Shown here: positions 19,491-40,770 of the stretch, piece after piece | Numbering within the stretch: position 1 is the stretch's first letter | Layout of the letters: the number at the start of each line of letters is the position of its first letter | Source of the DNA: Isoetes taiwanensis | Taxonomy: Eukaryota > Streptophyta > Lycopodiopsida > Isoetales > Isoetaceae | DNA: 64,000 bases | Assembly (NCBI GenBank): GCA_021234155.1 | Contig: JAJEKV010000047.1 | Coordinates: forward strand, 8,720,033-8,784,032 | Direction of reading: 5' to 3' | Notes under the pieces: model-generated | Database searches by the model: none | Seen by the model: the letters and a program-made list of their open reading frames with translations, nothing else | What the model was told of the DNA's origin: nothing | Program-made: the position numbers and the translations under genes

Positions 19491-21036
19491 AAAGTTTTTT
19501 TTTTTTTAACTATTGACACCATTAGGTGATTATCCAATATGATCTGGTAATAGATACAAATGGAGATATAGGAATATAGAGTTGAGCATTGAAATATTGA
19601 CATCCACATTTGTAACTGACTGGAACATTTGTTGCTTAGAAATTGTAATGTTAACTTGGCCTTCTCTAGAGAGCATGGGGAATATGTTACTTTAAACATG
19701 GATGTTGGCTTATTTATGAAAATATCTAAACCTATGAATTTGAATCTTTTGCATGCTTTAAATGCATGTTTCATCCAAGCCCATAAAGTTTAACCTTTTA
19801 CATGCATCTTTAAATGCATGTTAGGCACTTGGCATTTAGCAAGCCAAGAAAGGCTTGCTTGCAAGAATTATTTACTTTGGTACCTCCATGAAAAGGTCTT
19901 ACATCTGTACCATCATGACACGTACCTTCTAACCATTGGATATGCATGTAAAAGCTAAAAGATATATGGAATGACATGCAACTATGGTAGACTAGTTTGG
20001 ATTCCTTAAAATATTGGAAGAATAAATATATTTAGGGTGAGATTCCACTACCGTGCGTACCCATTAATTTACGTGGCACTAAAGTCACTCGAAATAACCG
20101 AGTTTTTTTACGTCTATCATTCAACGAACGAGGGCACTTTAATATTTTAATGCCACGTCGTTATTGCCACATATTGTTCATAGAAAAACCTGCGACAGAA
20201 ACTTTCAAGCGAGGAAAGGATTCGATCAAACAGAGACGGTAGCGAATCGAAAGGCTTCTTCCTCCCGTGCCTTCAAAATAGGTATGCAAGTTCTATTTTT
20301 TCTGTTTCAGTGGATTCTCTTGTGTTCTATAGTTTAGTAACAGAACAATACGGAATTCTCAGGCCATTAGAAACTGGTGAAATGGAAGTATTTGATAAGG
20401 AAACGATTGAGAACCAGGGAGATTCGCCATAAGCAAGATTCGCCATAGGGCTGTCATCTGCATGCAATTTCTCTTTGGTATTTGTGGACATAATTTAGTT
20501 GCTATTTATCTGCTTCATTAGTCTATTGACAATTGAGAAGTATTGCTCTATTGTTGAAAGCCTTTTCAAATAATGTAATGCACCATTTGTTTTTACAATG
20601 TCCAGATTTCTAATGTTGTATGCAATGGAGCAGGGACAGGGTTTTTTTCTTCTGGAGAGTGCATCTTCTTATTTGATATTGCGTAGTTGCTTTGTTTTGT
20701 ACCATGAAAATCCATTGAATAGTTTGGTCTTATTGAATACTTATTGAATAGTCTCTACATTCGTATGTTCCATCCCAACACTGAACTACAGCTTTTAAAC
20801 TTCATTTACAACTTAGTTTTAAGATGAATCTGCAGGTCAGTCTGTTGGGCAAGATAAATGAAAGGTCACCTGGTCTGTCTGGTGGTAAAAATGTCATCAT
20901 TGTTCACAAGGTTGTTCGTATGGAAGACAAGAAATTATGATGTATTGGCAATGGGGCTATGATCACATGATACGATAAATTTTGAAGCAATATACCCTCG
21001 AGAACTCTCCAATGCCAAGCTTGCGTAGTAAGACTA

Positions 21037-21495
21037 GTGGCACCACCAAAGTCGGACCCTCGGACTAGTTTCAACACAAGTGAAAGAAACAAATTTGGAT
21101 ATTTGGATCCCGACTATCTTGGACATACAAGCCGACAACTAAAAGTGACGATACTCTTTTGGCGCCCCGATGGTAGAAATATTCGAGGAAGGGCCAATAG
21201 AGTTGGGAAGGCCGCGAGGAGTTTAATTACGAAGAAGATGGGTATGTTCTCTTTTGGATATTTCGAATGTGGTCTGTATCATAAGCAACTTATTTAAAAA
21301 CTTTCGCTATATATGGCCGGGCATTTAAGAAATTTGTGGAAGGCAAATTGAATGAAGTCCTGGATCCAAAGCTGGAAAGGACACAGAACATTCTTTCTAC
21401 GTTTGAGAAGTTGGCAGAACATCTAAAAATAAGAGACCAACAATGAAGGAAGCAAGTGAGAAGCTGTCTTATTTTAGAAGGGACTTTCAAAAGTG
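21037..21495 (+). pseudogene. Receptor-like (wall-associated type) kinase fragment
   Basis: The C-lobe of a protein kinase is recognisable in three pieces. FGYLDPDYLG at 21097-21130 is the activation-segment end found in wall-associated and related receptor kinases. GKLNEVLDPKLE with ILSTFEKLAEHL follows at about 21340-21430. KRPTMKEASEKLSYFRR, subdomain XI with its conserved Arg, lies at about 21434-21490 in another frame and ends at a stop. The N-lobe, the HRD catalytic loop and DFG are absent or unreadable. It lies wholly inside the Harbinger-like element, so it is best read as captured host sequence with no kinase activity. Confidence 0.75.
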
Positions 21496-22398
21496 AATTA
21501 TCACGGACACCAACTCAAGAGGATCATCATTGCATAGCCCATTTCAACCCAATGTTGGACCCTTCCAACATCCATATGAGTTACCACAACAAAATTAAGA
21601 ACATAAAAGTGATCCCCAAATGAAAAATATAAGGAGAGTTTTAATGAGATACAATATGTTATGATCCAATACAAATCTGTCATGTTGACATACCAATTAA
21701 CTGTACTAGATTGCAGAGTACGTATCTCCTGTTGTATCTTCTGGCATAAAGATTATAAAAAGCCAGTTTTAAGTATCTTCGGGCTTTCTATTCTCAGCTA
21801 AATCCAGCATTTCGATTCTCAACTAAAGGGACTGATGGTCATTTAAATGATGGTCTGCAACGTTTGCAAATGGATGACTTGGGGCTTCAAACAATAGTGA
21901 TTCTATATCTAGATGCAATGTGTTATTGCATAGTTGCTGTACATTTTTGTCGCCATACCAATTCTGAACGAAAGGATTAAGTAGGAAAATCAATTTCTCT
22001 ACATTCTTATAGTCCATCCCAGCACTGAACTAAATGATATAATAGCGAGAATGCAATCGAATGAATCAATCAATTATACTTCTGCAAAAAATACTAATGA
22101 TGTAAAACAGTGCAAGGTCTTTGCTTATTTATAAGATCCAAACTCTATGGTTTCAAATTCGTATGGTCCATCCCAACACTGAACTAAATGATAAGATTAG
22201 GTCCAAGCATTTGGGTCCAAGCAGAACTCAATGACTTTTTCTTGTTGTTTTAGTAGTATACAAAAGGGATTCATTACAAGCGAGGATTCATTACATACAT
22301 TGATCCCCAAATAATGAGATACAATATGAGATACAATATGTTATGATTCAAGCAAAGATATCTTGACAATTAATGACAAGGGCTTCAAAGTTGGGATG

Positions 22399-22833
22399 TT
22401 ATAGCAACTGATAGACAGTCAGCCTCATATTTAACCTGTCAGCATGATCTTTGTGGTCAGCCTCTATTTGCTTCCTCAGTTGTAGCACAGCGATAAATCC
22501 ATACATTTCAATCAGGTGATTTTGTATGTATATGGCTCCTTCAATCCCATTTGCAATAATAAAAGCATGTAACCATTTTCCCTGCGCCAGAACGTTTTTG
22601 GCTCCATAAAGTCTTAATGCAGAACTACATTGCTTAGCCAACATCACAATTTTTGTGATTGATAGAAACAGCTCAGATGCTTCATCTAGCATGCCACATG
22701 TGCAAAGATTACTGATAATAGAATTATACGTTGTCTGTCTAGGCACAGATTGCAGCTTCAAAAGTTTATGAAAAATGACATAAACTTTATCAAGCGGTGT
22801 TAACTCCATGATCATTACCTTGTGCAGAAACAC
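22399..22833 (-). pseudogene. Pentatricopeptide repeat (PPR) protein fragment
   Basis: The - strand frame contains TTYNSIISNLCTCGMLDEAS, a PPR motif, followed about 25 residues later by LAQGKWLHAFIIANGIEG and YIQNHLIEMYG, the typical GKxLHAxIIxxG...NxLIxMY spacing of PLS-class PPR proteins of plant organelles. Only about two motifs are present, against ten or more in an intact protein. The first methionine at 22833 is not a credible natural start. The piece lies inside the Harbinger-like element on the opposite strand to the kinase fragment, indicating a separate capture. Confidence 0.75.
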
Positions 22834-23998
22834 TTGAGAAAGTTCATAAACTTGTGAAGTAATACCTGTTGGGCAATTCTATTGTCTGCAACATAAAGCC
22901 AAAAGCAAGGAAGTGCAATGCACAAGAGAATAGGATATGCATGACTCCAAAGAATGCAGCTGCATGCAATGAACTATAGTCCCCTATACAAAGTAAAGAA
23001 GTAAAGAAGAATTATGGAGGCATTATGTGGCATTTTCAGCTTTGAACATAACTGTCTTAAGCTTTTGGTCAGAGCCTAAACTATAGGTGCTGGCTACCTG
23101 AACAGGAAGCTTATTAAACTATAGGTGCTGGCTACCTGAACATAGTGCTTCCTCATCCTAATTGAACCAATATGAGCACATAAGAAAATCTTTCAATATG
23201 GTGTGGTCTGTGCTCTAGCTAGATACTGAAATGTACAACACCAAGCATATGAGCTGCTATCTAGAAGACACTGCTGATTTGCTTATGCCATTTTGTGCAA
23301 CAGGCATGTCAATGCACTATGCCATTCCCAAACAATCAGATACCCATGAACATCGACATATGAAACAGGGTTAAATCCGCAAACAGAGTTTCGCGGGGAA
23401 TGCTTCTCCACGTGGCGAAACGTGAGCATTCGGCAAAAATATTTTCTGTTACGGCCAGCCAATATTGGCCGGCCCTTAAAAATGCCAAAGGCACCGCCAC
23501 GTTCGCATAGATATTTTAAGTGCCGGGAATATATTTTAAAAATGCGTGGAAGATATTGTTGCGGACGAATTTATGGCTTGTAAGTTTTTTAGTGGCTATA
23601 ATAATAAAATTTAAATTTAATTGCCGTAGTGGAATCTCACCCTTAGATTATGATTTAATCGTGTGAAATGTAAGAGACTAGGGTTTCGATTTGGCTTCCT
23701 AAAACTTAAAAAGGCTTCACGTCGGTTGTAGGTATGGCGAAGTTCTCTCCAGGTGGCACTTATAGTTTCCGGTGGTTGGTAATGTCTGTTGACATCTCTC
23801 ACGAATTTGCACGAAGGTTAGTAGCTCTACTTTAAGTCTTGATTTTAGGGTCCGCTCCGGAAGATTTCCATATTCCATAAGCATGTAAAAGATATTCAAT
23901 GGATACAGAGCAGTAATTGTAGTACCCTAGGGAGTGATTAGACAAAGGTCAAAGGGATTTTCCCGCATTTGGGCCTTAAGGAGAAAGGGATAGAATGT

Positions 23999-24340
23999 AT
24001 TTCGATTATGATCTGGATGGGTTACCATTTAGTTCGGAAAGGCGAATTGGAAGCGCTCAATAAGGAGCTATTAGATTTGAACTTTCTTGGTGTGATAACT
24101 CCATTACTGAAGTTGTGAGTGAGTGTGAGGGCTGCAACATGAATCTTGGTGGGCAAAAACATGCTCTAAGCAAGTATGGCTCAAAAAAATATCTTTGGTG
24201 GCGACAAGCGATATAAACATAAAGAGCAAATAGAGGCTTCCTCGAAATGAGTATTCCCGATACACAAGCATCTCGAAGATGGTGAATCGATCATGAAGAA
24301 CAAAGGTATAGGGGGGTATTTTATTGCAAAGCTTATTAAC
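23999..24340 (+). pseudogene. Copy A of the unassigned acidic exon
   Basis: Collinear with the open exon at 39076-39390 of copy B, but broken by several small insertions and deletions. For example CCTCGAAATGAG here stands against CCTCTGAAATGAG in copy B, and GAATCGATCATG against GAATCTGATCATG. The changes concentrate at CTG/CAG, so the breaks could be consensus errors rather than real decay. Confidence 0.7.
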
Positions 24341-24862
24341 AATTTGTTGGGTGGATTACATTACATGAATATTGAGCTGGCGATATCTATACATTAGTTT
24401 ATACTCTAGGTTGATGGTTATTTGTTAAATTGAAATAAGTGTAGCACTTCCCCCGCCATTTTTCTTTTGAGTACTAACATAGGGCAAAGGGATACAAAGG
24501 GTGAAGGGCTATAAGCCGTGAAAACCAATGTACCTTTTGGCCCTTCATGTTTTACCATTTATATGCTAATTCATGATTGGCTGATTGATTGCAGTGCGTG
24601 GTTTTCACCTCCTTTATCTACCATTTGCTCGCTTGGATGTGTTCTCTTGGAAAAGGCTGGGGAATGGAAGATATGGATTTGGAATATTTCTTTGCGATGG
24701 TGACTCAAGTTCCGTTTAAAATTATGAAAACATCGATAGCATTATACTTTTGTTGTAGATGCAATAAGGTACGAAATATAGGTTTTATAATCAAGAAATT
24801 TTGAAACAATGGAGCAGATCGGCATTAGGTCAAAAACAATGGAACGGTCGGCATATATTAAT

Positions 24863-26556
24863 CGTGGACGTTCCAAAGACGATTATACGGTCCCGGGGCG
24901 TATCTTTGTCATTGCCCCGCCAGCATTTACCACTCCGACCGACGGTACGCCAACGTAGCGCCAGCGGGTAGCCCCTAGGGGGCAACTTGCAAGGAGTGTG
25001 CATTTATTAATGTGCACATTTAACCATGTGCACATTTATCTAGGTGCACATTTTCCCATGTGGACACTTTTTATGCCAAGTGGGCCATACCCATAGGTGC
25101 AATTAATGTGCACATTTTCCAATGTGCACATTCATTAATGTGCACACATTTCCATGTGAGCACAATTGGGTGCACCCATTTCCATGTGGGCACATTTGGC
25201 CACCTAGCCCTTAAAGGCAAGTGGGCCCATTCCCAATTATCCCACATGCCTAAAGGGGATAATTGGAAACCCTAGCCAACCCCTTGTCTATTTAAGTAGG
25301 AGAACCCTAACTTGCCCATTTTTCGTTTCTAGGGTTTTTAGAGCTCTGTTTTTGATCCGCCCTGGGTCAAAAGCGCCTCCCGAACTGGCCCGAGAGAATT
25401 GCATCATTAGTTTTCCTTGATTCGAGCATCTCACAGGATGGTCGAGCCTCAGTCGGGAGGAGGAACTCAAGGATCGGTATTTAGGCAATTTAATAGTCTA
25501 AACCCCATTTGACCATCGAATCAAGAGGTTTAGCCTCTTAAATTGCCCATAGCAGACCTTCTAGATCTCTAGATAGCGATTCTAACTAAAGAACCTAACT
25601 CTATGATGTAGATTAGATCTAGTTCTTTAGTTCTCTCGTGAAGTATATGGATGATGTATCTCTATGAACTCCTTGTATTGGGAAGGGGGTAGAGACCTAA
25701 AAGCTTTGTAGTTGATGCTCCTAGAGTAGCCTCTCTAGCACATTGTAGATTCGCCTGTGGTACAAGAACCACACCTGGTTGTGGGTGAAGGGGCCGACCG
25801 GCTAAGAAGGAGGTTCATGTCGACTCTTGAACGATCCCTTTGGCGTGTAAGGCCTACCGGGGATCATTGTGACTAGGTCTAATGGCTTACCACCGAGTGC
25901 TTGGGTAAGGCATGGACTCGACACCCGTGAAGTGGTGTACACTTTCCGGTGGGGTTCACGGATCACAGGCGGTGGCCCTCTAGTCACCTTTGAGTCAGCA
26001 TGTAGATCTGGAGGGAGTGATCCCTTCTCGCCCCATCGAACCGGGAAGATGAACCCGGGAGTAGCCCTTTTGGCTATGCATCCGGCTGGCTCTGATCAGT
26101 CCCGACACTTTTTCAGCCTACTCGCAAAGTGTGCACGCAGGAGGGGCGGATGGAGTGGACAACCCTAAGCCATGTTCTTATGCCGACCAAATCCATTGCC
26201 ATGAATTCGGCATGCGCAATGAACTCACGGAGACCCAAGCCGTCGGTCATCCCTTTGAGTCTGAGCCTTGGGTAGGATTCCCATATGTATTGTGCTGATC
26301 TTGTCTATGCAGATGTGATGGACCACCCTTCGAGGTGGATATGTGATGTTATTGTATACTGACATGTATGTTTACGCTTCCGCAGCTAGGTAGGCCCTGA
26401 GGGAGACGGGGTAAATGACCCCTTCACTCTTCCCACTGGAACCCGTTACGGTTGCAGTGTTATGTGGAGGGCCCTGTATCGGCATGGAGCTGGTATGGGG
26501 GATGAACTCATGTTTGTATACGGTGAGTGCACCGTATACGAGTAGGGGACGTCACA
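24863..26556 (+). repeat. 5' LTR of the 11.5-kb retrotransposon
   Basis: 1694 bp, collinear with the 3' LTR. The U3 part (24997-25205) carries about a dozen GTGCAC-type units. A TATA-like CTATTTAAG lies at 25288-25296. The last 41 bp contain a perfect hairpin at 26516-26539: GTATACGGTG, loop AGTG, then CACCGTATAC. Differences from the 3' LTR cluster at CAG/CTG sites. The left-end hairpin of the 3' LTR (34737-34765) is degraded here. Confidence 0.92.
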
Positions 26557-26557
26557 G

Positions 26558-26570
26558 TGGTATCAGAGCA
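26558..26570 (+). promoter_or_regulatory. Primer-binding site (tRNA-iMet type)
   Basis: TGGTATCAGAGCA lies one base after the LTR end. TGGTATCAGAGC is the usual complement of the 3' end of initiator tRNA-Met in plant Copia and Gypsy elements. It shows the transcription direction is +. Confidence 0.92.
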
Positions 26571-26914
26571 ATGTTCTTGGAGACCAAGAGCAAAGCACTG
26601 ACCATGCTCCCAGTAGTACTAACTTGATAGGATTCTCAAACCTGTCGAAGAATGTGGAAAAGTTTTTTCCCATTTTTGTAGTGTATGCTAAGCTAGTAAC
26701 AGTTAGGAGCATTGGAAAATAAGAAGTTAGAAGAATTGGAACATAAGAAGACTAAAAATTAGTGAGCCAAGCCTCGAAAGTGAGCAACGTGTGAGACATT
26801 GATCTTAAAGTGATGAAATTTAAAAAAAAAGTAACTTGGTAATTCGAATTTTAAGCTAGGAATTAGCTAGATTAGCCTTTTTAATCTATTTGAACCTCAT
26901 CTTAAAAGAATTCC

Positions 26915-26995
26915 CACAGTAGCGGGAATTGAACCTCCCACCCACAGGATTGAACCCCCCCAAACCCTCCCGTGCCAACCACTGAGGGCGGGCAT
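26915..26995 (-). mobile_element. tRNA-like SINE head inside the retrotransposon leader
   Basis: On the - strand an A-box-like CCCTCAGTGGTTGGC and a B-box-like GGTTCAATTCCCGC occur in tRNA order, separated by a long G-rich spacer that repeats TTCAATCC. It does not fold as a complete tRNA. It is probably a SINE head or tRNA relic inserted between the primer site and the H3-like frame. Confidence 0.5.
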
Positions 26996-27139
26996 CATTT
27001 GTGTTTGAATTATAATTCTTAATTAGATTTAAGCTTTAATAATGTTAGATAATATTAATGGCTAAGCCTTAGACTTAGAACCAAGACCCTTAAGCTAGAT
27101 AGAGACGGCATCTTGATAGACACCAAGCCTCCGATCGAC

Positions 27140-27388
27140 ATGACGCGCACCAAACAGACCGCTCGACTTCCTCGACAAGGCGAAACAGCCAGAGGCCAAG
27201 GAGGCCGAAGGAAACAAGAAGAGGAGAGAGCAGAACGAGAGCGGGAGGCCAAGGGTCAAGAAGTAGCAGAGCAGAAGCTGGTCCAACATTTTGAAGACTC
27301 AACAGCCTGCACAGTACACGCCAAGGGAGTAACTCTAATGAAGAAAGATATGCACTTAGCCAGTCATATCAAAGGCGAGCCTTATTAA
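27140..27388 (+). CDS. Histone H3-like peptide (H3 tail plus end of H3 fold) encoded by a retrotransposon
   Basis: This 82-codon frame is the first intact frame after the 5' LTR. Residues 2-9 are TRTKQTAR, identical to the H3 tail from Arg2 to Arg8, including Lys4; the position of Lys9 is Leu. Residues 10-40 are a highly charged linker (RRKQEEERAERE) unlike H3. Residues 42-82 align without gaps to the last 41 residues of H3 with 21 identities by my count, including FED, C, HAK, VT, KD, LA and GE. This covers the end of helix 2, loop 2 and helix 3. Helices N and 1 and most of helix 2 are missing, so it cannot form a normal nucleosome core partner. It could mimic the K4 tail or bind H4 weakly, or be a decayed captured gene. 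The frame opens 27 codons before the ATG, but no other ATG is present. The homology is secure; the function is inferred. Confidence 0.8.
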   Translation: MTRTKQTARLPRQGETARGQGGRRKQEEERAEREREAKGQEVAEQKLVQHFEDSTACTVHAKGVTLMKKDMHLASHIKGEPY

Positions 27389-27529
27389 TTTCGTAAATGA
27401 TAAAATTTGTTTAATACAAAGTGTTTTAGAGTAAATTATAAGTGTATAAAGTTACTTAATTAAGTTGAGTTAGTAAGTTTTAGCTTTTGTTTTAGTCAAA
27501 ACAGACATCCTAGGCCAATTTGAGAGGAT

Positions 27530-27811
27530 GTCTCACACGTCGCGCCAGGACAGAAAATGAAAAGTTCATTATCGGCCCGGGCATAGCGTGTGAGACCATA
27601 TTCGGAGACCATGCCCCAAAAGTGCCCAAAACTGCTCCAAATCGACCAAATAAGGGGTCCATTCTGCCTAACTCGACGAGATAAGTAGGATTAGACCCTT
27701 ATATCACCCAAATTGGACAAGTTTAACCCATTTTGAGCCAATGTCTCACACGTCACGCAGGAGACGAGATAATGAAAATCTCATTTTCGGGCTGGGCGCA
27801 ATGTGTGAGAC
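27530..27811 (+). promoter_or_regulatory. Duplicated stem-loops in the retrotransposon leader
   Basis: GTCTCACACG (27530-27539) pairs exactly with CGTGTGAGAC (27587-27596). A second unit 213 bp on has GTCTCACAC (27743-27751) pairing with GTGTGAGAC (27803-27811). The sequences between the arms are related (AATGAAAA, TCATT, TCGGGC). GTGTGAGAC recurs singly at about 26789 and 31719. Position and duplication resemble retroviral-type packaging or dimerisation signals, but this is inference. Confidence 0.55.
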
Positions 27812-27819
27812 CTCCAAAT

Positions 27820-30800
27820 TTTGAACCTCCATAACTTGAGCTACAGAGCTCCAAATCGCCTGAAATTTGTTGCGTTAGGACCGTTAGACAGCCTAGAATC
27901 CATTTATGATCTCAAATTAGGATAGAAATGTCAAACCCCATCTCAAAATGACCAAAATTGCTCAAACCCTTGAATTGTTTTTCCAAACTGTAGTTTGTTT
28001 GTAGATAGAAGCATACCCCATTAGTAGCTCGCAAGTATTGCTCTCGGCTCAAATCTGATGCCTTACTCCTACATAGAAGTTCCCAAGAACACCCCTTTGT
28101 TATAGTCATCTAGACCTCAGCATAGCAACCCAAGTCCAACTCTTCGTACATCACCTCTGCTCATGGCCAAGGCGTAAACCCTGACCTAATTCTGCGTCCT
28201 TCTAATAGAGTTTGACTTATATAGCCGCCACATTGACACTCCCTATTGCCAGGATACTTAGAAAGGAGCTAGAGTCTAGAGCTGCTCAAGTCACTCCATG
28301 TGTAGATATTGGACCCCTCCCTCAAACCAACTTTGCTAAGACCTTAGAGTATGCCTCAAACATCATGGATGTTTTGCAAAACAACCCTCATTTCATGCCA
28401 TACCACACGTCCTAATGTCCATAGACTTGGAGATTATAGATATGTCTCCAGTAATGCAGCTCGAGCCATCTTGCTTGCTTATAGAGCCTAGAATGTTGTA
28501 GGAGAGCCCTCCAGGTAGACCCTTAGACTCTAGGATATACGAGAGTTGCTTTCGAAGTACAGGGCCAGAGCCACAGATGAGCTAGAGGCGCAACTTCTTG
28601 AAGACATCAAGGTCCCAACCGATGTACAAACAGATAAGGAGAGGAGACCGAAAAGGCAGACCCAAGAGAGAGAAGCACAACGACAAACACCTCAATCGAC
28701 AAACGAGTAGAACAGGACACCACCGGCCTATCATCAATCTTCATCAAATGGGAAGAATATTTAGTAACCAACGGCATCAAGAATTTTCTAGATGTCAACC
28801 TCCCGGCTACCACGACGAGGTCACATCAGAAAGAGGATCTCGACGCCTTCACCGACTCGACGCACATGAGTTTCAAATGGAAGAATACAAGGCAGCAAAA
28901 TATAGGTGCAGGAAGACGTTAGACATCGATGCCGCGTTAGCATCACGAGCTAGGGCCGAGGGCATAATCTTTTCGTCGAGGAGAGAAGTCATGGCGACAG
29001 AGGCGTATAGAAACCGGAGGGAAGACCACCACGACCTTGCAGCCCAAAGAAAGCTCAAGCGAACGTCATGCAACGTCAACAAAAGGAGCAACCAAGCTAA
29101 GCAACAACAAAGCACCTAAGGCTAATCGGGGACAAGCTTCCAGCTACCTTGCACCAGCAGGAGAATTTTCATCGGTTCCAAAAAGTAGGAGACCATGAGG
29201 GGGAGGAGACGCATATCAAGGAACATCTCCGACTCGAAGGCCTATATCAGCACTAGGGGCAAGATCAAGGAGGAGAATATTATGCTCAAACAGAATTCGG
29301 ACCCGTGAACACCTAGAAACCAAAGGAAGGACGGCTTTACCACGCCAGCCAAGGAGTGCGAGACTCGAATGGTTAGGGACCCAAAGGACGGAGGAGGCGA
29401 CCCTAGCCGCCAGGTACAAATCACCAAAAGGCGACCCGGAAGGAGCCATGGTAGGGGGCAATGGAGATGACCACACTTCCGGCACATGAGAGCCACCTCG
29501 GAATGAAGCAAAGCCCAAGCAACAGAGTCGCACTTTCGAAATTCAACTCCGCGGGGAATGACAATGCCCGCCACCGACCACGATCTCGTGAGCTTGAAGA
29601 CATTCAAGAATGCCCGTACCGCAACAGCCGGGTGACCCTACTCAAGCTTCGACCAATGGCACGCATAAAATCAGCAATCTTGCAACGACACACCGCATGT
29701 AGGGACGTGAGCGGTTACCGCATTCCTCACGACGGACATACGCATTAATGAGGAGCATCTTTCTCAAGGGATCACATCGACGAACACTCTTCGCAACTGG
29801 TGGCGACGAACTCGGATCAGACATGAAGCTCAACAATAGTAGCAGCATCTCAAGGAATCCCGGAGTCAACCAGAACGAAGAAGATGCAGCAAAACCGAAG
29901 GATCAAATGCGATAGGAGGAGGGGAAACCCTAAAGGAGTATAAACATTTAAGTAGATATTCGTAATTGTTTTGGAAAAGTGGATGAATCAAAATCCCAAT
30001 GTAAATGCATATATGTCTATTGTATATCTCGGGTGCTCACAGATATAGTGGAGAAAGATGAGTTTAAAGTCATGTTTTATGGATTTAGCGCTTAGATCCG
30101 GAAGCTCCTTCACTTCGACTACCAAATGGGGAAGCAAGGAAGCACAACTATAGCCCAAGACCAAAATGGAAGAGCAAGTACGAGGGAGAACAACCAGAGG
30201 CCAAGCAAACCTTCGACTCCAAACACTTCGGGAAATGCCCTCAAGCAGAAGACTGCTCGGACACCCAATGTTAGAATAAGAGACAACACCGGTCATGTCA
30301 AGATCATCAACGCGGCACCAGGACATCGTCAGGGCGCAACACTACCTCTTGTAGCAGTGGCAGCACTTGACGAACTTATGACACGAGTGGCCTCAACAAT
30401 AGAAGGAGGAACGCCCCGACATCAACGAGCCAACTAAGAAGGCAACATCTCGACGACCATAATTCCACCTTGTGGTAATATAGGGTGATGCGCTATGACA
30501 CGTGTATTAGATGGAGATGCACTTACGAAAGGCACTGTGACGAGGAGATATGCCTTCAACAACTAGGTGATGGCTTCGTCAGGTACTCCTACCAGTAGTT
30601 AGAAGAGAAGAAGCCGATCGTATCTCCGACATGGATAGCATTCGACACCTTAACGACAAGGATAGCAACTGAAGCACCTTCGACAAAAAGAGAGAGTTCA
30701 AGATAATAGCCAGGCTATTCAACGACAAGAGTATATCTAAGGCAAGTACTTCTTCAACTCAAGGGTCAAGCTGCGCAGATATAGGGATCCATCACCCCGA

Positions 30801-33800
30801 CAACATAGCCAGCAGGGAGGAGAGCCATGATGCTTTACTTGCCAGAGAGGCCGACATGCATAGAGGGGCAAAGGTCAGGAACTGAAAGCTGCAGAAGTGC
30901 TAGCAACCAACTTCTTCCACGAACTCCCTAGAGGCAACAGGAGGATCAAAACTGACGAGCACAATCAAAGCCACCGGAAGGTACCTCAAGACAAGAAGAC
31001 GGCATAGTACTGTGGAACGTGACAACGTCCAAGCCATGTGATCGAGGAGATCAAACAACGAAGTTTGGAAGCTCGATGGAGAAGCAACTAGGCGAGGCGA
31101 GCCGATGACTTGCACGCGGACTTGCATGCAACTTGGTGAACCCAAGGATGGACGATTCAAAGAACAACTGCAGAAGAGAACAATTCCAGAGGAGTATAGC
31201 CAAAGGAATCGCACACAACCTCAAGAGACGCCTCTAAATAGCTTCAAGTATCATGAAGGGGAGAACAATTACAGCCCGAGAACAGGATCAGGAAGCAGAC
31301 CGAAATGTCGAAGCATCAATGACCAGCACACCTTTATTTAGAATGTGATGCAAAGCGTGTTGTGCCATAGCTGACAAATACCGGAGGGTCCAAGTATATC
31401 AACAAGTTACCCCGGAGTACGAGCCGACGTACAAATAGGAGGATATAGATCGTCAACACCATTGCACCAGGAGGAACACCGATGACATTGCCAAGGAGTA
31501 GGTGCGCAACTCGAAGGGAGGCACAAGGGAGACCTAATAGCTCTAGTAGTAATTGTAATTATGTAAGCTATATGTTTTGCATGTATAGTTCCCTTGTTAT
31601 TCCTTCCGTCCCATAGCGTAACAGATCAAAGGAAGAGATGTCATGCAAGTTGCAGGGGTGAAGCAATCAACATCGTCAACACTCTTCGGGCAACACGATA
31701 ACGACAAGAGGACTCGACGTGTGAGACATCGATGGAGTCGAAGAAACAATATCGGATACAGAGTCGTCCTTTAGCTGCCAAGACAAAGAGTTCAGGATGA
31801 AAGATCTTTTTCAACGGCACCACCTTCAAGCTTTTGAAAAGCGGCATGGAAGATTTCAAGTGATCAACTACACCATCAAGCAACAATGAGAGGCTTCTAA
31901 CGAACAAAGTCAACCTCTACATCAAAGAGGAGCCACCGTCAAGGAGACTGAAGTATCGAGCGACTCGGAAGAACGTCACCTTGCTACTTCAAGCAGGCAA
32001 CAAGTGGATGAGCTTCTAGCAAGCTCAAGGATCTAAGGCCATGGGGCCTAGTAGGTTAAATGTAGGGATGGTAACATCCATATTGGGATTAGAAGGCAAT
32101 TCCGGATATTCTCGTTGAAAGGATTGCCCAATTGGGAAGCAAACGCATAGGAGTAACTAAAATTATACACGATTGTTAACAGACATCCAACATATTGAAA
32201 CCACTTGGTGAGATTGATCACCTCGCTAAGAAGGAATCATTACTAGGATAATTGTTGACCATGTATAAATCTAGTACCTCCAAAGGAATAATCCAACCGA
32301 AAGAAAAGAAGTAAGCTAACAAGTCCGGCCAACTTGTTACGATGGCATCAATTCGATTGGTAGGAATATTCCAAGAGTTTAAATAACTAAGAAAGGGGGA
32401 ATCTCTAGAATATAAAAGAATAATACATGTAAGGTACATCTAAAATAAGAATTATAGTAATCAAATAGTCTTTTGAGACAAAAGGAATTGTCGTCATGAC
32501 AAAACCTTGTGGTTTAGAATTGTTAACTAAGTAGGTAACCCATAACTATATTGAAATAAATGATAACATAATATGTGCATCCATCTTAGATGGGTATATA
32601 TGTCAGCTAAGGCTAGTAAATTAATATGCTAAGTAAGGAGCGTATAACCTCTTAAGGGGAGAGAATAGATATGACGTTGTGTACAATGTCATTGAAGGGG
32701 TGCAGGACCATTTTCTTTTCGAAGAAAGTGGGAGGGCTCAATCTTAGGATTGAACGTACTTGCATCGAATTGACCGAACCGTAGAATAGAGTTCACTCCG
32801 GCAATGGCCGAAGCGAGTAGAGCGTAAGATAGATAGATAGATAGCTCAGGAGGCCTTCAACGGCGAGACGGACGTAGTAGCTAACTACACCAACGAAGTG
32901 GAGCAAAACCATGGGAGCAATGCAACGACCAAGTCATCTCCAAACTACTCGACGCCGGCTCAATGGGTGGATGTGGTCTAGCTTTAGGTAAGGCATGCGC
33001 ATGTATTATAAGCTTTAATATGTCTATTGATAAGTTAAATATAGATCCTAATAACTGCATAGAAATTGTTGTACGTATATGTATCATAGGGAAATAAGTT
33101 AAATAACAACGATAATGTCAGGTAGCATGTTAATTAATCCTTCGCAAGGATGCAATTCCTTCCAAGGATAGCTAAATGACCTCGGGGTCCTTATAAATAT
33201 AAATAGAAAATAGAATTCGGATATACTTAAGTGCATCTTAGGGATATACTTCCAAGGGTAATGCAGGACCCAAGGAAGAGAATAAAAAGCACATCTAATT
33301 CTTGTGTATGATAATTAAAACATTGTCTATGTAACAATAGGTCTAAATCAGGGTTATTGTTTAAATAATCGCGATCTAAAAGTCGTTAAATATTGTAAAG
33401 CTTAGAGTAAATATAATTGTACTATCGGAAGTAATGTATCCGATACTATGATAATGTTAATTCATAAATATTACCTTAGGGTAATTATGTTAATCACATG
33501 CATTAAAGGAGCCAAACAAAAATCAACTCGGGCATGTCGATTTGTGTTTAGATTAGTTTCATGTGTAGTTAAGATTAATCCACGATGCAACCTATGCCGG
33601 TATGGGTTGCATCGCGCGTATTTATCGAGGATGGGACCACTACGGTGATCTCTAGGGCGTGGTGTAATGTCAATGTAGGCATGACCGCGTTTCGCTTGGA
33701 CGAAAGTGGAAGGTAGATTAGAAAGTCTACTGTCCCCACGGAAGTAGGCGACCCTCGAGAGAAAGGAGGTCATTGAGAGATGCATTGATAGGAAAGGCAC

Positions 33801-34080
33801 CTTTAGCCCCATATATGCTTTGATAGGAGGAATCTATCCTTCACGCCCCATATATACGTGAAGGATATCCTCCACTTGGGCAACTAGAGGTGTAGGCATG
33901 AGCGCATATAGGCATATAGGCTGTCTCATGCCATAATGGAAGATTCACCCCTCTTCCTCTGTAGGAGATTAGCCATGCATCCATGTAGATAGGTGGGGTG
34001 GTCACCATATAACCAAAATTTTATTAAAAATTAAAATGGTAATAACGTGAGGGTCCAACAGCAGGCCAATAGAGCACTCC
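27820..34080 (+). other. Retrotransposon interior without recognisable gag-pol
   Basis: Purine-rich on the + strand with many CGAC and GAAG words. Several frames of 70-170 codons exist (for example 28598-29119, 29461-29748, 30126-30437). None shows protease, RT, RNase H, integrase, zinc-knuckle or chromodomain motifs, and on the - strand none does either. A (GATA)n run lies at 32829-32842. Small-indel damage, real or from sequencing, could hide an old polyprotein. Confidence 0.6.
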
Positions 34081-34084
34081 GGAG

Positions 34085-34640
34085 GGCAAGGAGGTCGAGC
34101 TACGAAGACTTGCAACACAAATTTTGTTGTAATGTGTTGCAAGGGATGAAGAGTACCTTAGAAGTGTAAATTTTGTATGAAATTGATAAACTTTGATAAA
34201 CTTAAATGTTGTATTAAGTAACGTTAATAATTACCTTGCGTGGATTAAGTTATGAAGTGATAAGTTAATTGGATAATGAAATAGTACAGTAATGTCTTAA
34301 ACATTACCTTAGAGTAATTCTAATAATTAACATAGTAAGTATGTAATTATAGATATTGTAAAATTAATGCAGGATTTTAAGGTGCGAAGACTTGCAACAC
34401 AAATTTTATTGGAATGTGTTGCAAGGAATGAAGAGTACCCTAAATAATAATTGTATATGAAAGTGTTAAATTGTGATAAACTAAATGTTGTAATAACGGA
34501 GACTAATAAGTACCTTGTTTTAATAGAAGTTACGAATTGACAAGTTATTTGATAATGTAATGGTGTAATAATGATTTAAAAATATTACCTTAAGGTAATC
34601 TTAATAAATGTGTAAGTATTATAATAGTATATCGGATGCA
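34085..34640 (+). repeat. Two-copy tandem repeat before the polypurine tract
   Basis: Unit of about 290 bp: CGAAGACTTGCAACACAAAT at about 34097 recurs at about 34386, and each copy ends in an ATTACCTTA-GGTAAT block. The second copy has the perfect palindrome ATTACCTTAAGGTAAT near 34586. A third, partial ATTACCTTAGGGTAATT lies at about 33470. Confidence 0.75.
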
Positions 34641-34710
34641 TCAGGTTGATTGCAGGTTAGGAAGATTCCAAGGTGGGGAGACCCACGATGCTGCGGACAG
34701 CATCATTTCA

Positions 34711-34722
34711 AGGTGGGGAGAA
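34711..34722 (+). promoter_or_regulatory. Polypurine tract
   Basis: AGGTGGGGAGAA abuts the 3' LTR start TGTGACG. It is the expected plus-strand primer for reverse transcription. A related AAGGTGGGGAGACC lies at 34669-34682. Confidence 0.85.
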
Positions 34723-36410
34723 TGTGACGTTCCAGCACAGTATACGGTCCCAGGACGTATACTGTACTGCCTCGTCACGCGTACACGCCACTCCGACTGA
34801 CGTGTACGCCAACGTGTAGCCAGGCGGGTAGCCCCTAGGGGGCAACTTGCAAGGAGTGTGCATTTATTAATGTGCACATTTAACCATGTGCACATTTATC
34901 TAGGTGCACATTTTCCCATGTGGACACTTTATGCCAAGTGGGCCATACCCATAGGTGCAATTAATGTGCACATTTTCCAATGTGCACATTCATTAATGTG
35001 CACACATTTCCATGTGAGCACAATTGGGTGCACCCATTTCCATGTGGGCACATTTGGCCACCTAGCCCTTAAAAGCAAGTGGGCCCATTCCCAATTATCC
35101 CACATGCCTAAAGGGGATAATTGGAAACCCTAGCCAACCCCTTGTCTATTTAAGTAGGAGAACCCTAACTTGCCCATTTTCGTTTCTAGGGTTTTAGAGC
35201 TCTGTTTTGACTGCCCCAAGGGTCAAAACTGCCTCCCAGACTCTGTCTGAGAGAATTGCATCATTAGTTTTCCTTGATTCGAGCATCTCAGCAGGATGGT
35301 CGAGCTCAGGTCAGGAGGAGGAACTCAAGGATCAGGTATTTAGGCAATTTAATAGTCTAAACCCCATTTCAGCCATCGAATCGGTAGGTTTAGCCTCTTA
35401 AATTGCCCATAGCAGCCTTCTAGATCTCTAGATAGCAGATTCTAACTAAAGAACCTAACTCTATGATGTAGATTAGATCTAGTTCTTTAGTTCTCTGTGA
35501 AGTATATGGATGATGTATCTCTATGAACTCCTTGTATTGGGAAGGGGGTAGAGACCTAAAGCTTTGTAGTTGATGCTCCTAGAGTAGCCTCTCTAGCACA
35601 CTTGTAGATTCGCCTGTGTACAAGAACCACACACGGTTGTGGGTGAAGGGGCAGGACCGGCTAAGAAGGAGGTTCATGTCCCGACTCTTGAGCCATCCCC
35701 TGGGGTGTGTAAGGCCTACCGGGGATCATTGTGACTAGGTCTAATGGCTTACCGAGTCGAAAGGGTAAGGCATGGACTCGACACCGTGAAGTGGTGTACA
35801 CTTTCCAATGGGTTCGGTCGGGACACGGGCGGTGGCCCTCTAGTCACCTTGAGTCAAAGATGTAGATCTCTGGAGGGAGTGATCCCTTCCGCCCCATCGG
35901 GCGGGAAGATGAACCCGTGAGTAGCCCTTTTGGCTATGCATCCCGGGACTCTGATCCAGGTCCCGACACTTTTCAGCCTACTCGCAAAGTGTGCGGGGAG
36001 GGGCGGATGGAGTGGACAACCCTAAGCCATGTTCTTATGCCAGCCAAATCCATTGCCATGAATTCTGTCTGCAATGAACTCTGGAGACCCAAGCCGTCAG
36101 TCATCCCTTTGAGTCTGAGCCTTGGGTAGGATTCCCATATGTATTGTGCTGATCTTGTCTATGCAGATGTGATGGACCACCCTTCGAGGTGGATATGTGA
36201 TGTTATTGTATACTGACATGTATGTTTACGCTTCCGCAGCTAGGTAGGCCCTGAGGGAGACGGGGTAAATGACCCCTTCACTCTTCCCACTGGAACCCGT
36301 TACGGTTGCAGTGTTATGTGGAGGGCCATGTATCGGCATGGAGCTGGTATGGGGGATGAACTCCTGTTTGTATACGGTGAGTGCACCGTATACGAGTAGG
36401 GGACGTCACA
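34723..36410 (+). repeat. 3' LTR of the 11.5-kb retrotransposon
   Basis: 1688 bp, starting TGTGACGTTCC and ending GGGACGTCACA. It keeps a left-end hairpin at 34737-34765 (ACAGTATAC pairing with GTATACTGT) and a right-end hairpin at 36370-36393. The GTGCAC array is at about 34854-35060 and a TATA-like CTATTTAAG at 35146-35154. Frames inside have no coding meaning. Confidence 0.93.
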
Positions 36411-37635
36411 TTAACTGAGTCTAAAGGTACGGTCTTCTTTACAAATACAGATTGCAAGGTGCTAGTAGAACTCAAATTAAATTTTGGGGAAGCACATTAT
36501 GCTAAGACATGATATTTTGAATGTAGCTGAAACTTGGCTTCAACATTTCCTGTAATATGCAATATTTATGCATTCTCGCTCATATTCTAAAAATCGTAAA
36601 CAAGGGAAAGTTTATATCTATATCATTATTTTGGAAAGTTACGGGGTGTATTGCGTATTAGATTAATGTTTGCATGGGATAAACTGCAGAGTTTGAAATA
36701 AATAAAGATTTGATCAAATATGGAAAAAGGTGAGTAGAAGTGAACCTAAAGGTCCAGTTACATACTCAAAGACACAAATGATAGAATAGTTGTGAAAACT
36801 AAAAATTATGGAAGGTGATCGTAAAATAATTGTTTTTCCTAGTTTTCCGGCTTGAATAGAAATTACACAAATGGACATGGAAGGGGCAGTCATAAAAATC
36901 TTTAGTAAGAAGCATTAAGAACAGTTTGCACTATATGCAGAGGTAAGCACTACCATGATTTTATACATTAAGCGATGATAATAGATTAATGGTTATGCAT
37001 CTAAGAGATTTCTATGCTATATTTAAATGTTGGATTGGTTGATACATGTAGCTTGTCAAGTTCTATAGCAGTTTGCAAATGATGGAACATGATTCTTTAG
37101 AATGCAAGTACCATTTTTGTCATTACATGACTTATAGTGGATTGATAATACAACTAAGGGATTGACCGAAGTTGATGTATATGCTAGCTAGTTGGACTAG
37201 GCTAGTTCTACTGGGTTTTTTTAGATACTTCAATACATTGGTATAACCAGTGTTACTTGTGACTTGAGAATCATGTTCCTTACATTTACGTCTGCATTAT
37301 GGACTGCAATTTACTAGTTGATACCTTTGATTGCATGCTGATGCTATAATACTAACAATGTTTACTCTCGTACATTATAGGAGAATACTATAGTCAAGAA
37401 GATTGAGATGATGAAGTCGTTCTACCAGTATGGAACAATAAGTCTTGATAGCAGTTCACTCTTTTATTAATGGTAAGTCTAGATATTTTGAACTATCTTA
37501 TATTTATGCATCTGTTGATGTATTCATAGTTTGCATTATGCAAGTTTAAACGTTTTATAGATTTTCCTAAACCTACTGTCCAAATGTTCTTCTAAAGTGG
37601 CCAAAACCACTATGCACTTGCACATAAGACTATCC

Positions 37636-38031: not shown

Positions 38032-38206
38032 GTACGTCTTCTAATCGATGACACAAATAGGGTGTTGATGCATAGAAGTATATCGGGCTTGCTTGTTATA
38101 TTAGGTAGGGCATGACCTCTATTGTATAATTAGGGGTCTGCCCTCCCTAATATTGCAGCAACATAAAAAGAGGTCAAAACTACCTAACGGTTGGAGGTAG
38201 GATTTT

Positions 38207-40770
38207 TTTTTTTTTAACTATTGACACCATTAGGTGATTATCCAATATGATCTGGTAATAGATACAAATGGAGATATAGGAATATAGAGTTGAGCATTGA
38301 AATATTGACATCCACATTTGTAACTGACTGGAACATTTGTTGCTTAGAAATTGTAATGTTAACTTGGCCTTCTCTAGAGAGCATGGGGAATATGTTACTT
38401 TAAACATGGATGTTGGCTTATTTATGAAAATATCTAAACCTATGAATTTGAATCTTTTGCATGCATCTTTAAATGCATGTTTCATCCAAGCCCATAAAGT
38501 TTAACCTTTTACATGCATCTTTAAATGCATGTTAGGCCAAGAAAGGCTTGCTTGCAAGAATTATTTACGTTGGTACCTCCATGAAAAGGTCTTACATCTG
38601 TACCATCATGACACGTACCTTCTAACCATTGGACATGCATGTAAAAGCTAAAAGGTATATGGAATGACATGCAACCATGGTAGACTAGTTTGGATTCCTT
38701 AAAATATTGGAAGAATAAATATATTTAGATTATGATTTAATCGTGTGAAATGTAAGAGACTAGGGTTTCGATTTGGCTTCCTAAAACTAGCAAAAGGCTT
38801 CACGGGCTGCGCCGTATGGCAGAGTTCTCTCCAGGGCAGTACAGTTTCTGGTGGTTGGTAATGTACAGTGACATCTCTCACGAATTTGCCTGAAGGTTAG
38901 TAGCTCTACTTTAAGTCTTCTGATTTTAGGGTCTGCTCCAGAAGATTTCCATATTCCATAAGCATGTAAAAGATATTCAATGGATACAGAGCAGTAATTG
39001 TAGTACCCTAGGGAGTGATTAGACAAAGGTCAAGGGGATTTTCCCGCATTTGGGCCTTAAGGAGAAAGGGATAGAATGTATTTCGATTATGATACAGATG
39101 GGTTACCATTTAGTTCAGAAGACGAATTGGAAGCGCTCAATAAGGAGCTATTAGATGCTGAACTTTCTTGGTGTGATAACTCCATTACTGCTGAAGTTGT
39201 GAGTGAGTGTGAGGGCTGCAACATGAATCTTGGTGGGCAAAAACATGCTCTAAGCAAGTATGGCTCAAAAAAATATGCTGGTGGCGACAAGCAGTATAAA
39301 CATAAAGAGCAAATAGAGGCTTCCTCTGAAATGAGTATTCCTGATACACAAGCATCTGAAGATGGTGAATCTGATCATGAAGAACAACAGGTAGCACAGG
39401 GGGTATTTTATTGCAAAGCTTATTAACAATTTGTTGGGTGGATTACATTACATGAATATTCAGAGCTTGCTGATATCTATACATTAGTTTATACTCTAGG
39501 TTGATGGTTATTTGTTAAATTGAAATAAGTGTAGCACTTCCCTGCCATTTTTCTTTTGAGTACTAACATAGGGCAAAGGGATACAAAGGGTGAAGGGCTA
39601 TAAGCCGTGAAAACCCAATGTACCTTTTGGCCCTTCATGTTTTACCATTTATATGCTAATTCATGACTGATTGGCTGATTGGCTGCAGGTACGTGGTTTT
39701 CACCTCCCTTTATCTACCATTTGCTCGCTTGGATGTGTTCTCTTGGAAAAAGGCTCGGGAATGGAAGATATGGACTGGAATATTTGCTGCAGTAGCTGAC
39801 TCAAGTTCTGTTTAAAACTATGAAAACATCAGATAGCATTATACTTTTGTTGTAGATGCAATAAGGTACGAAATATAGGTTTTTATAATCAAGAAGGCTG
39901 AAACAATGGAACAGATCTGGCATTAGGCTGAAACAATGGAACAGATCTGGCATATGTTAACTGAGTCTAAAGGTACGGTCTTCTTTACAAATACAGATTG
40001 CAAGGTGCTAGTAGAACTCAAATTAAATTTTGGGGAAGCACATTATGCTAAGACATGATATTCTGAATGTAGCTGAAACTTGGCTTCAATATTTCCTGTA
40101 ATATGCAATATTTATGCATTCTGCTCATATTCTAAAAAATCTGTAAACAGGAAAGTTTATATCTATATCATTATTTTGGAAAGTTACAGGGTGTATTGCG
40201 TATTAGATTAATGTTTGCATGGGGTAAACTGCAGTTTGAAATAAATAAAGATTTGATCAAATATGGAAAAGGCTGAGTAGAAGTGAACCTAAAGGTCCAG
40301 GTTACATACTCAAAGACACAAATGATAGAATAGTTGTGAAAACTAAAAATTATGGAAGGTGACTGTAAAATAATTGTTTTTCCTAGTTTTCCGGCTTGAA
40401 TAGAAATTACACAGCAGACATGGAAGGGGCAGTCATAAAAATCTTTAGTAAGAAGCATTAAGAACAGTTTGCACTATATGCAGAGGTAAGCACTACCATG
40501 ATTTTATACATTAAGCGATGATAATAGATTAATGGTTATGCATCTAAGAGATTTCTATGCTATATTTAAATGTTGGATTGGTTGATACATGTAGCTTGTC
40601 AAGTTCTATAGCATTTTGCAAATGATGGAACATGATTCTTTAGAATGCAAGTACCATTTTTGTCATTACATGACTTATAGTGGATTGATAATACAACTAA
40701 GGGATTGACCGAAGTTGATGTATGTGCTAGCTAGTTGGACTAGGCTAGTTCTACTGGGTTTTTCTTTTTT
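38207..40770 (+). repeat. Segmental duplication, copy B (unoccupied)
   Basis: Collinear with copy A without the Harbinger-like and LTR insertions. The two empty sites are near 38722-38732 (ATATTTAGATTATG) and at 39952-39965 (CATATGTTAACTGA). A 30-bp tandem (GGCTGAAACAATGGAACAG, GATCTGGCAT) is duplicated at about 39896-39953. It ends in a long mixed T/C tract (40757-40792). Confidence 0.9.
39076..39390 (+). CDS. Acidic coding-like first exon, family not recognised
   Basis: ATG at 39076 opens 105 codons to a donor-like CAG|GTAGCA at 39390/39391. The product is acidic (SSEDELEALNKELLDAE, then SEDGESDHEEQQ) and includes a CEGCNMN block. A stop precedes the ATG in frame, so it would be a natural first exon. 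Copy A of the duplication holds a damaged version at 23999-24340. An intact frame in copy B against a broken one in A argues that the sequence was once coding. I cannot assign a function. Confidence 0.45.

What the first reader, a model, noticed from the sequence alone, without database searches (positions are those of the whole stretch)
27140..27388. A retrotransposon encodes a split histone H3: H3 tail plus last third of the fold, middle replaced by a charged linker
Seen: an uninterrupted 82-codon frame just inside an LTR element. It starts with TRTKQTAR and ends with a 41-residue gap-free match to the H3 C-terminus (21 identities by my hand alignment). Lys4 and its context are kept and Lys9 is lost. 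Known: the H3 N-terminus is read by K4 methyltransferases and demethylases and by PHD-type readers. Inference: an element-coded H3-tail mimic could titrate or recruit chromatin factors at new insertions or on element RNA or DNA, which would be a new anti-silencing or targeting strategy. The frame is intact while everything resembling gag-pol is gone. The cautious alternative is chance capture of an H3 pseudogene.
Basis: partly seen in the sequence, partly recalled or inferred. Interest (0 to 1): 0.92.

Follow-up and report, generated by a model that had tools for sequence, protein, structure and literature searches.

The report
Retrotransposons carrying a histone H3 gene
Jumping genes in a plant genome, most likely a quillwort, carry pieces of the gene for histone H3, the protein that packages DNA, and a fully equipped relative of the element in the window carries a nearly complete H3 joined to an unknown protein and kept by natural selection.

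Summary
Window 27140-27388 is an open 82-codon frame with the H3 tail (MTRTKQTAR) and an H3 C-terminus (phmmer E 3e-9), inside an 11.5-kb LTR element without recognisable gag-pol ("A"). A is repetitive: 150 copies scored; 22 of the 30 best have no stop. The tail-mimic reading is weak: tail and linker show no clear codon constraint. The C-terminal half does (pN/pS 0.29), but copies were chosen by protein similarity, and two groups of copies share stops. The larger result lies outside the window. The same genome (almost surely Isoetes taiwanensis) holds an autonomous-type Ty3/gypsy chromovirus family ("B") with A's PBS, PPT and LTR ends. B's first ORF (~410 aa) is an unknown domain fused to a complete H3 core. 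All 20 copies fetched after a search by the unknown domain alone carry the H3 part; dN/dS is 0.19 in the 14 not picked by frame length and 0.11 in all 19 usable, while synonymous resemblance to host H3 is down to chance. I propose that B's protein works through H4 or H3-H4 chaperones as a chromatin adaptor; that step is inferred. A is a gag-pol-less relative with a shrunken H3 remnant.

The parts
27140..27388 (+). 82-codon H3-derived frame of family A: H3 tail (res 1-9), charged linker (10-38), H3 alpha2 C-half + L2 + alpha3 (39-82)
   Evidence: 150 scored copies in the genome. Helix names are recalled
24862..26556 (+). 5' LTR of the element (ends CGTCACA; its first bases differ from the TGTGACG of the 3' LTR)
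26558..26569 (+). primer binding site TGGTATCAGAGC (tRNA-iMet type, recalled), also found in B copies L061 and L063
26124..26275 (+). LTR stretch 77% identical to the LTR of 3 of 4 fetched B copies (the 3' LTR counterpart, 35984-36129, 79-81%)
26570..34709 (+). internal region: leader, H3 frame, A-rich remainder without recognised gag-pol
34710..34722 (+). polypurine tract AAGGTGGGGAGAA; B copy L066 has AAGGAGGGGAGAA with a similar upstream context
34723..36410 (+). 3' LTR, followed by TTAAC target duplication
19495..37220 (+). 5' LTR of an outer LTR element, broken by this insertion (24862-36410) and by another (20036-23642); its unbroken partner LTR is 38203-40763

Best explanation
Shown: elements of one Ty3/gypsy lineage in this plant carry histone H3 in the first ORF behind the PBS. 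Family B (LTR - ORF1 with H3 - ORF2 - ORF3 - gag - protease-RT-RNaseH-integrase-chromodomain - LTR, ~13.5 kb) keeps a complete H3 core behind a ~290-aa unknown part, under purifying selection and long separated from the host's H3 genes. The window element (family A) is a gag-pol-less relative with the same ends, plausibly moved by B-type proteins, that keeps an 82-aa H3 remnant. Inferred: B's ORF1 protein pairs with host H4, or binds H3-H4 chaperones, through its H3 core, and its N-terminal part thereby ties element products (gag particle, cDNA or integrase complex) to host chromatin. A's remnant keeps only the alpha2-end/alpha3 half, the part that in H3 faces the second H3 and the chaperone ASF1 (recalled); at most it is a weak competitor, and more likely a passenger in decline.
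For: B ORF1: Pfam Histone E 2.5e-41 over residues 290-405. B gag, protease, RT, RNaseH, integrase, chromodomain by Pfam in L064/L065. LTR pair, PBS and PPT in L063/L066, ends shared with A. Selection: 8 whole copies found by H3 likeness: dN/dS 0.094 (residues 1-200), 0.239 (middle), 0.035 (H3). Control, copies found by the N-domain alone: 20 of 20 carry H3; dN/dS 0.114 over 19 usable, 0.072 for pairs with dS over 0.6; in the 14 not picked by frame length 0.186, and 0.107 for their 3 far pairs. 75 of 150 N-domain hits have an open frame of 400 aa or more (counted). Host and B match at the third position of shared residues in 37.5%, against 39.1% expected if codons of each residue were paired at random, yet 36 of 43 residues are alike: an old capture held by selection. 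In 15 B copies found by H3 likeness, changes from host H3 in all 15 are S86T, S87F, V89I, G102A/V, E105G/D, T107A, I124L, Q125A, A135P; no arginine before R134 changed.
Against: That A moves by B's proteins rests on shared ends only. A's H3 does not branch inside B's H3, so one common capture is not shown. One of three B copies searched shows a CCHC zinc knuckle behind gag (L064; not found in L062, L063), so H3 need not replace nucleocapsid. Many N-domain-found copies carry indels in the H3 part (12 of 20 have at least one), by assembly error or decay. The copy with the LTR pair (L063/L066) has a broken pol; pol domains were read in L064/L065, whose 5' LTR was not recognised. In L061 likeness to the others ends behind ORF2.
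Confidence: 0.6

Rival explanations
1. A's H3 frame is a functional H3-tail mimic that titrates or recruits K4 readers and writers.
For: RTKQTAR kept in 25 of 30 best copies; 22 of 30 without a stop.
Against: Tail and linker pN/pS 0.77 with limits that include 1; H3 Ala1 kept in 5 of 30 only; 14 of 46 copies with stops, some shared within groups.
Confidence: 0.08
2. A's frame is a passenger: a captured H3 fragment hitch-hiking in a non-autonomous element, with apparent constraint caused by choosing the best-matching copies.
For: Neutral simulation with such choosing gives 0.20-0.65 (12 settings). Stops shared by groups of copies. Three divergent copies (L067-L069) also match A's body and show no long gag-pol frame.
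Against: Observed pS 0.12 and pN 0.041 from the window copy (ratio 0.34); only one simulated setting reached that pS and gave 0.65. The ratio is low mainly in the H3 half (0.29), and other reading frames give 0.75 and 1.04 in the 28 top copies.
Confidence: 0.6
3. B's ORF1 serves packaging (nucleic-acid binding in the particle) rather than chromatin contact; the H3 core is used for its basic DNA-binding surface.
For: Basic stretch before the core; the CCHC knuckle was found in only 1 of 3 copies.
Against: L064 has a CCHC knuckle; the whole H3 core is nearly unchanged, more than DNA binding alone should need.
Confidence: 0.2
4. The H3 core of B is a recent capture still resembling host H3, not a selected part of the element.
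For: 71-86% identity to canonical H3.
Against: Synonymous positions at the chance level against host; H3 dS up to 1.25 between B copies with dN about 0.03; present in 20 of 20 N-domain copies.
Confidence: 0.02

Closest known systems
hAT DNA transposons with captured histone H3 in fungi (Pyrenophora tritici-repentis, Pseudocercospora fijiensis; PMC6710886, passages seen)
   Same: A mobile element multiplied an H3 coding sequence; truncated copies of 71-100 aa are common in P. fijiensis.
   Different: DNA transposons in fungi; described as recent in one, inactivated by RIP in the other. Here: Ty3/gypsy retrotransposons of a plant, fusion to an unknown domain, purifying selection over long divergence.
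Plant LTR retrotransposons with extra ORFs (eORFs; PMC6317226, passages seen)
   Same: An extra ORF of more than 250 codons upstream of gag in a Ty3/gypsy element.
   Different: The passages call eORF proteins highly heterogeneous, 21.4% with similarity to known domains; the named examples are plant mobile domain, Transposase_28 and Athila ORF-1. The one 'histone' in the main text concerns chromodomain binding. Supplements were not available to me.
Chromoviruses (Ty3/gypsy with integrase chromodomain)
   Same: B has RT-RNaseH-INT-chromodomain in that order.
   Different: Three extra ORFs before gag, the first with an H3 core. Clade (Galadriel, Tcn1 ...) not tested.
Viral histones, e.g. Medusavirus (PMC11500106, start of abstract)
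   Same: A parasite genome encodes core-histone proteins.
   Different: Giant DNA viruses; here a single H3 core as part of a fusion protein in a retroelement.
LARDs (large non-autonomous LTR elements; definition recalled)
   Same: A: long LTRs, PBS, PPT, no recognised gag-pol, 11.5 kb.
   Different: A keeps a small H3-derived frame.

Membership tests
Ty3/gypsy chromovirus (family B) | gag, protease, RT, RNaseH, integrase in that order | tested here: met
   (pieces of L064/L065, searched apart; integrase core 32.7 bits, cut-off 32.6)
Ty3/gypsy chromovirus (family B) | chromodomain at the integrase C-terminus | tested here: met
   PF00385 E 2e-8
Ty3/gypsy chromovirus (family B) | paired LTRs, PBS, PPT | tested here: met
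   L063/L066: LTRs 92% identical, PBS, PPT; not found as a pair in L064/L065
Histone H3 core (family B ORF1) | complete histone fold with H3 sequence | tested here: met
   99 residues against host H3 without gaps in 15 copies, Pfam E 2.5e-41, (by sequence only)
Histone H3 core (family B ORF1) | N-terminal tail with K4 and K9 | tested here: not met
   TKQTAR in 0 of 15 B loci
Histone H3 (family A frame) | complete histone fold | tested here: not met
   only tail and residues from about 87 on match
Histone H3 (family A frame) | RTKQTAR tail | tested here: met
   25 of 30 best copies; residue 2 variable
LARD (family A) | LTRs, PBS and PPT with a long internal region lacking gag-pol | tested here: met
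hAT H3 transduplication | DNA transposon with TIRs and 8-bp target duplication | tested here: not met
   A and B have LTRs, PBS, PPT; A has an about 5-bp duplication
Nucleosome-forming H3 | assembly with H4 into nucleosomes | not testable with these tools

The most novel reading that the evidence does not exclude
A plant retrotransposon lineage has its own histone: B's ORF1 protein replaces H3 in H3-H4 units or nucleosomes at the element's target or on its fresh DNA, displaying the fused domain in place of the modifiable tail, so that the element's chromatin cannot receive the usual marks on K4/K9 or is tagged for its own integrase. It would be a retroelement-coded histone variant.
Probability: 0.3. 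Interest if true: 0.95.

Novelty: new variant of a known kind. Interest (0 to 1): 0.84.

Why it matters
Capture of H3 by mobile DNA was known from fungal DNA transposons, where copies were recent or dead (PMC6710886, passages). Here a retroelement lineage has kept H3 as a part long enough for synonymous sites to drift to the chance level while the protein stayed put. That is good evidence that an element gains from an H3 of its own, and it makes a concrete question testable: does a retrotransposon protein enter host nucleosomes, or seize H3-H4 chaperones, to reach or shape chromatin? I found no description of such an element in nine searches of an open-licence paper library (a tenth was for the genome paper). 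I read listings, not all hits; subscription papers and preprints were not searched.

Tried and rejected
Tried and rejected: (1) 'Unique pseudogene': excluded by 150 scored copies. (2) 'A's H3 is a degraded copy of B's H3': the tree has A (100/100) and B (96/99) as separate groups, A not inside B; third positions do not decide (A-host 0.44, A-B 0.48). (3) 'LTR divergence dates the element': 61 mismatches in 1655 aligned bases plus 49 gap runs, in patches; the assembly that G000 matches is long-read, so I do not date it. (4) 'ORF1 N-domain and ORF2 are duplicates': hhalign probability 0.1%. (5) N-domain identity: no Pfam hit in member 1 of 7, only hits of E 0.05 or worse in others; best PDB hits E 0.46 and 0.48; none of 2411 candidates at E 1e-3 in the 5.8-billion protein set. 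The whole-protein search listed 120 of 5821 hits, covering mostly 25-28% of the query, that is the H3 part; of five that I opened all are gene models with two or more histone stretches, and one (P0055) has a long non-histone stretch between two H3 copies in which Pfam finds nothing else. (6) Rfam and tRNA scans of the window: nothing. (7) A sample of A by flanking DNA: not completed, so A's constraint stays suggestive. (8) H4 in elements: not answered.

Dropped or chosen rows: 28 of 30 A copies (two not of full length), 46 of 48 (L088, L089 frame-shifted left out), 19 of 20 (L108, a 46-base gap), 8 of 15 B loci (those with ORF1 open throughout), 7 of those 8, 8 of 48 A copies, then 21 distinct of 38 rows; 20 of the 120 A matches without a locus, picked by me over the range of scores for full or nearly full length; 14 of the 16 copies among the first 30 that were not's list (two passed over), plus six lower ones that all have open frames of 421 aa or more; the six alone (five usable) give dN/dS 0.015 and so pull the total down.

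Full report
What is in the window. The frame 27140-27388 is there, unbroken, 82 codons. In the best PDB match its residues 33-80 lie on the H3 C-terminus without a gap (whole-sequence E 3.4e-9; the 60 shown of 175 sequences go to 1e-7), and its first nine residues are the H3 tail with Ala1 changed to Thr. The middle of H3 (roughly residues 23-86) has no counterpart. The frame lies in an LTR element of about 11.5 kb, inserted in the LTR of another LTR element. No gag-pol was found in the 10 open frames scanned or with B's proteins. I call this family A.

Where it comes from. The window lies in G000, 1,658,258,908 bases in 1110 contigs. The published Isoetes taiwanensis assembly is 1658.30 Mb in 204 scaffolds and 909 contigs, built with Nanopore reads (PMC8566536, passages). 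I take the organism to be that lycophyte; this is an inference from size. The read type fits the patchy differences between A's LTRs and the many one-base indels in B copies.

Family A in the genome. A protein search gave 150 scored matches out of 8486 first-look candidates, so copy number is a lower bound. Of the 30 best, 22 have no stop in the matched part. On 46 copies (48 less two frame-shifted), pN/pS is 0.39 for the frame (codon bootstrap 0.26-0.58); tail 0.77 (0.15-2.33), linker 0.77 (0.41-1.44), H3 half 0.29 (0.18-0.45). On the 28 top copies the other two reading frames give 0.75 and 1.04; on 20 lower-ranked copies alone the frame gives 0.51 and its H3 half 0.41 (the two frame-shifted rows included). 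Against selection: all copies were picked by protein similarity, and neutral star-like simulations with such picking give 0.20-0.65 in 12 settings; only one setting reached the observed pS of 0.12, with a ratio of 0.65 against 0.34 observed. 14 of 46 copies hold stops. Codon 23 is TGA in six of 27 copies compared with the window copy; four of them (L016, L019, L022, L027) also share K38R and so look like one group. The others may be repeated changes, because the codon is CGA and a methylated CpG mutates easily (recalled). A stop at codon 72 is shared by L084-L087, and by eye by the two shifted rows. These groups multiplied, or descend from a copy that did, without a full frame, so the product is not needed in cis. 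The tail-mimic idea is not excluded, but nothing favours it.

The larger finding. A search of the same genome with a canonical H3 gave 15 host H3 genes (96-98% identity) and 135 further scored matches (71-86%), 150 scored of 9022 candidates; 51 of the 135 have open frames of 400 aa or more and six have a stop inside the match (frames counted, stops by eye). In the eight loci read in full this is an ORF of 408-421 aa: an unknown domain, a charged stretch, a basic stretch and then a full H3 core to the stop. Pfam reports only Histone above its cut-off (E 2.5e-41). Four copies were fetched at 9.9 kb and two of them at their downstream side. Read in pieces, they show LTR, PBS, ORF1 with H3, ORF2, ORF3, gag, protease, RT-RNaseH, integrase with chromodomain, PPT, LTR. 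No single copy shows all of it: the domains were read in L064/L065, the LTR pair in L063/L066, whose pol is broken but 78-83% alike in DNA, and L061 leaves the common pattern behind ORF2. I call this family B, a chromovirus.

A and B belong together. They share the LTR start (TGTGACGTTCC, from A's 3' LTR), the LTR end with PBS (CGTCACA-G-TGGTATCAGAGC), the PPT with its upstream context, and a 150-bp LTR stretch at 77-81% in three of four B copies. Inside, only the H3 end is alike (41 residues, 54%). A is thus a non-autonomous relative, plausibly moved by B-type proteins. Whether A's and B's H3 go back to one capture is open: the tree keeps them apart, and A keeps the tail that B lacks (TKQTAR in 0 of 15 B loci).

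Selection on B's H3. Eight whole ORF1 copies: dN/dS 0.094 in residues 1-200, 0.239 in the middle, 0.035 in H3, with H3 dS up to 1.25. Because these were found by H3 likeness, I took a control. The N-domain alone finds 150 scored copies of 3592 candidates, 80-100% identical, and for 20 of them, none in the H3-based list, the H3 part was fetched. All 20 hold H3, eight of them without any indel. For 19 usable copies dN/dS is 0.114; 0.31 for close pairs, 0.14 for middle ones, 0.072 for pairs with dS over 0.6. Six of the 20 had been picked from rows with long open frames; without them the 14 others give 0.186, and 0.107 for their three far pairs. The higher ratio of close pairs is what decay after insertion and read errors should give. 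Host and B agree at third positions of shared residues in 37.5%, and 39.1% is expected by chance pairing of the same codons: synonymous memory of the host gene is gone, while 36 of 43 residues agree.

What B's H3 may do. Of 99 core residues, nine differ from host H3 in all 15 copies compared (S86T, S87F, V89I, G102A/V, E105G/D, T107A, I124L, Q125A, A135P), and Y54F in 14. From recall, 87 and 89-90 are positions by which chaperones tell H3 variants apart, the alpha2 end and alpha3 face the second H3 and ASF1, and the DNA-facing arginines are among the unchanged residues. So I think that the protein still meets H4 and H3-H4 chaperones, and that the N-domain is brought to chromatin that way. This is inference. 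A CCHC knuckle behind gag was found in L064 but not in L062 or L063, so H3 is probably not a stand-in nucleocapsid.

Known or new. Fungal hAT transposons with H3 are the nearest published case (PMC6710886, passages; PMC3538342 seen only in a listing). Plant LTR elements with extra ORFs are known, but the passages that I saw name no histone ORF (PMC6317226). The two Isoetes genome papers do not contain the word histone in the main text held. My paper searches are limited to open-licence PMC. I file it as a new variant of a known kind, gene capture by mobile elements, with an unusual outcome.

Noticed in passing
window 27140-27388 and copies L001-L087: In family A, synonymous differences are three to five times rarer in tail and linker (pS 0.08 and 0.05) than in the H3 half (0.235). 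Recombination between subfamilies or a nucleotide-level signal near the leader could explain it; not resolved.
   Followed up: partly
window 19495-40763: Nested LTR elements: an outer element with 2.5-kb LTRs (3' copy 38203-40763) is interrupted by the A element and by a 3.6-kb insert at 20036-23642 of unknown kind.
   Followed up: partly
window 24862-26556 vs 34723-36410: LTR differences come in dense patches, many with one-base gaps, between identical blocks of about 100 bases or more; likely unpolished long-read error. One-base indels in patches also appear in B copies such as L091-L094, L096, L101.
   Followed up: partly
L062 3158-4561 (-), L063 2447-2944 (-): Family B has two further ORFs (about 460 and 150-170 aa) between ORF1 and gag without a supported Pfam match.
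   Followed up: partly
window 54588-55115: zf-RVT domain (E 3.6e-12): remnant of a LINE-type element (type recalled).
   Followed up: no
L031-L045: 15 host H3 genes in uninterrupted frames; 14 have A31/Y41/L90 with S87 or T87, and one (L045) has T31/H87, which resembles plant H3.3 (recalled).
   Followed up: no
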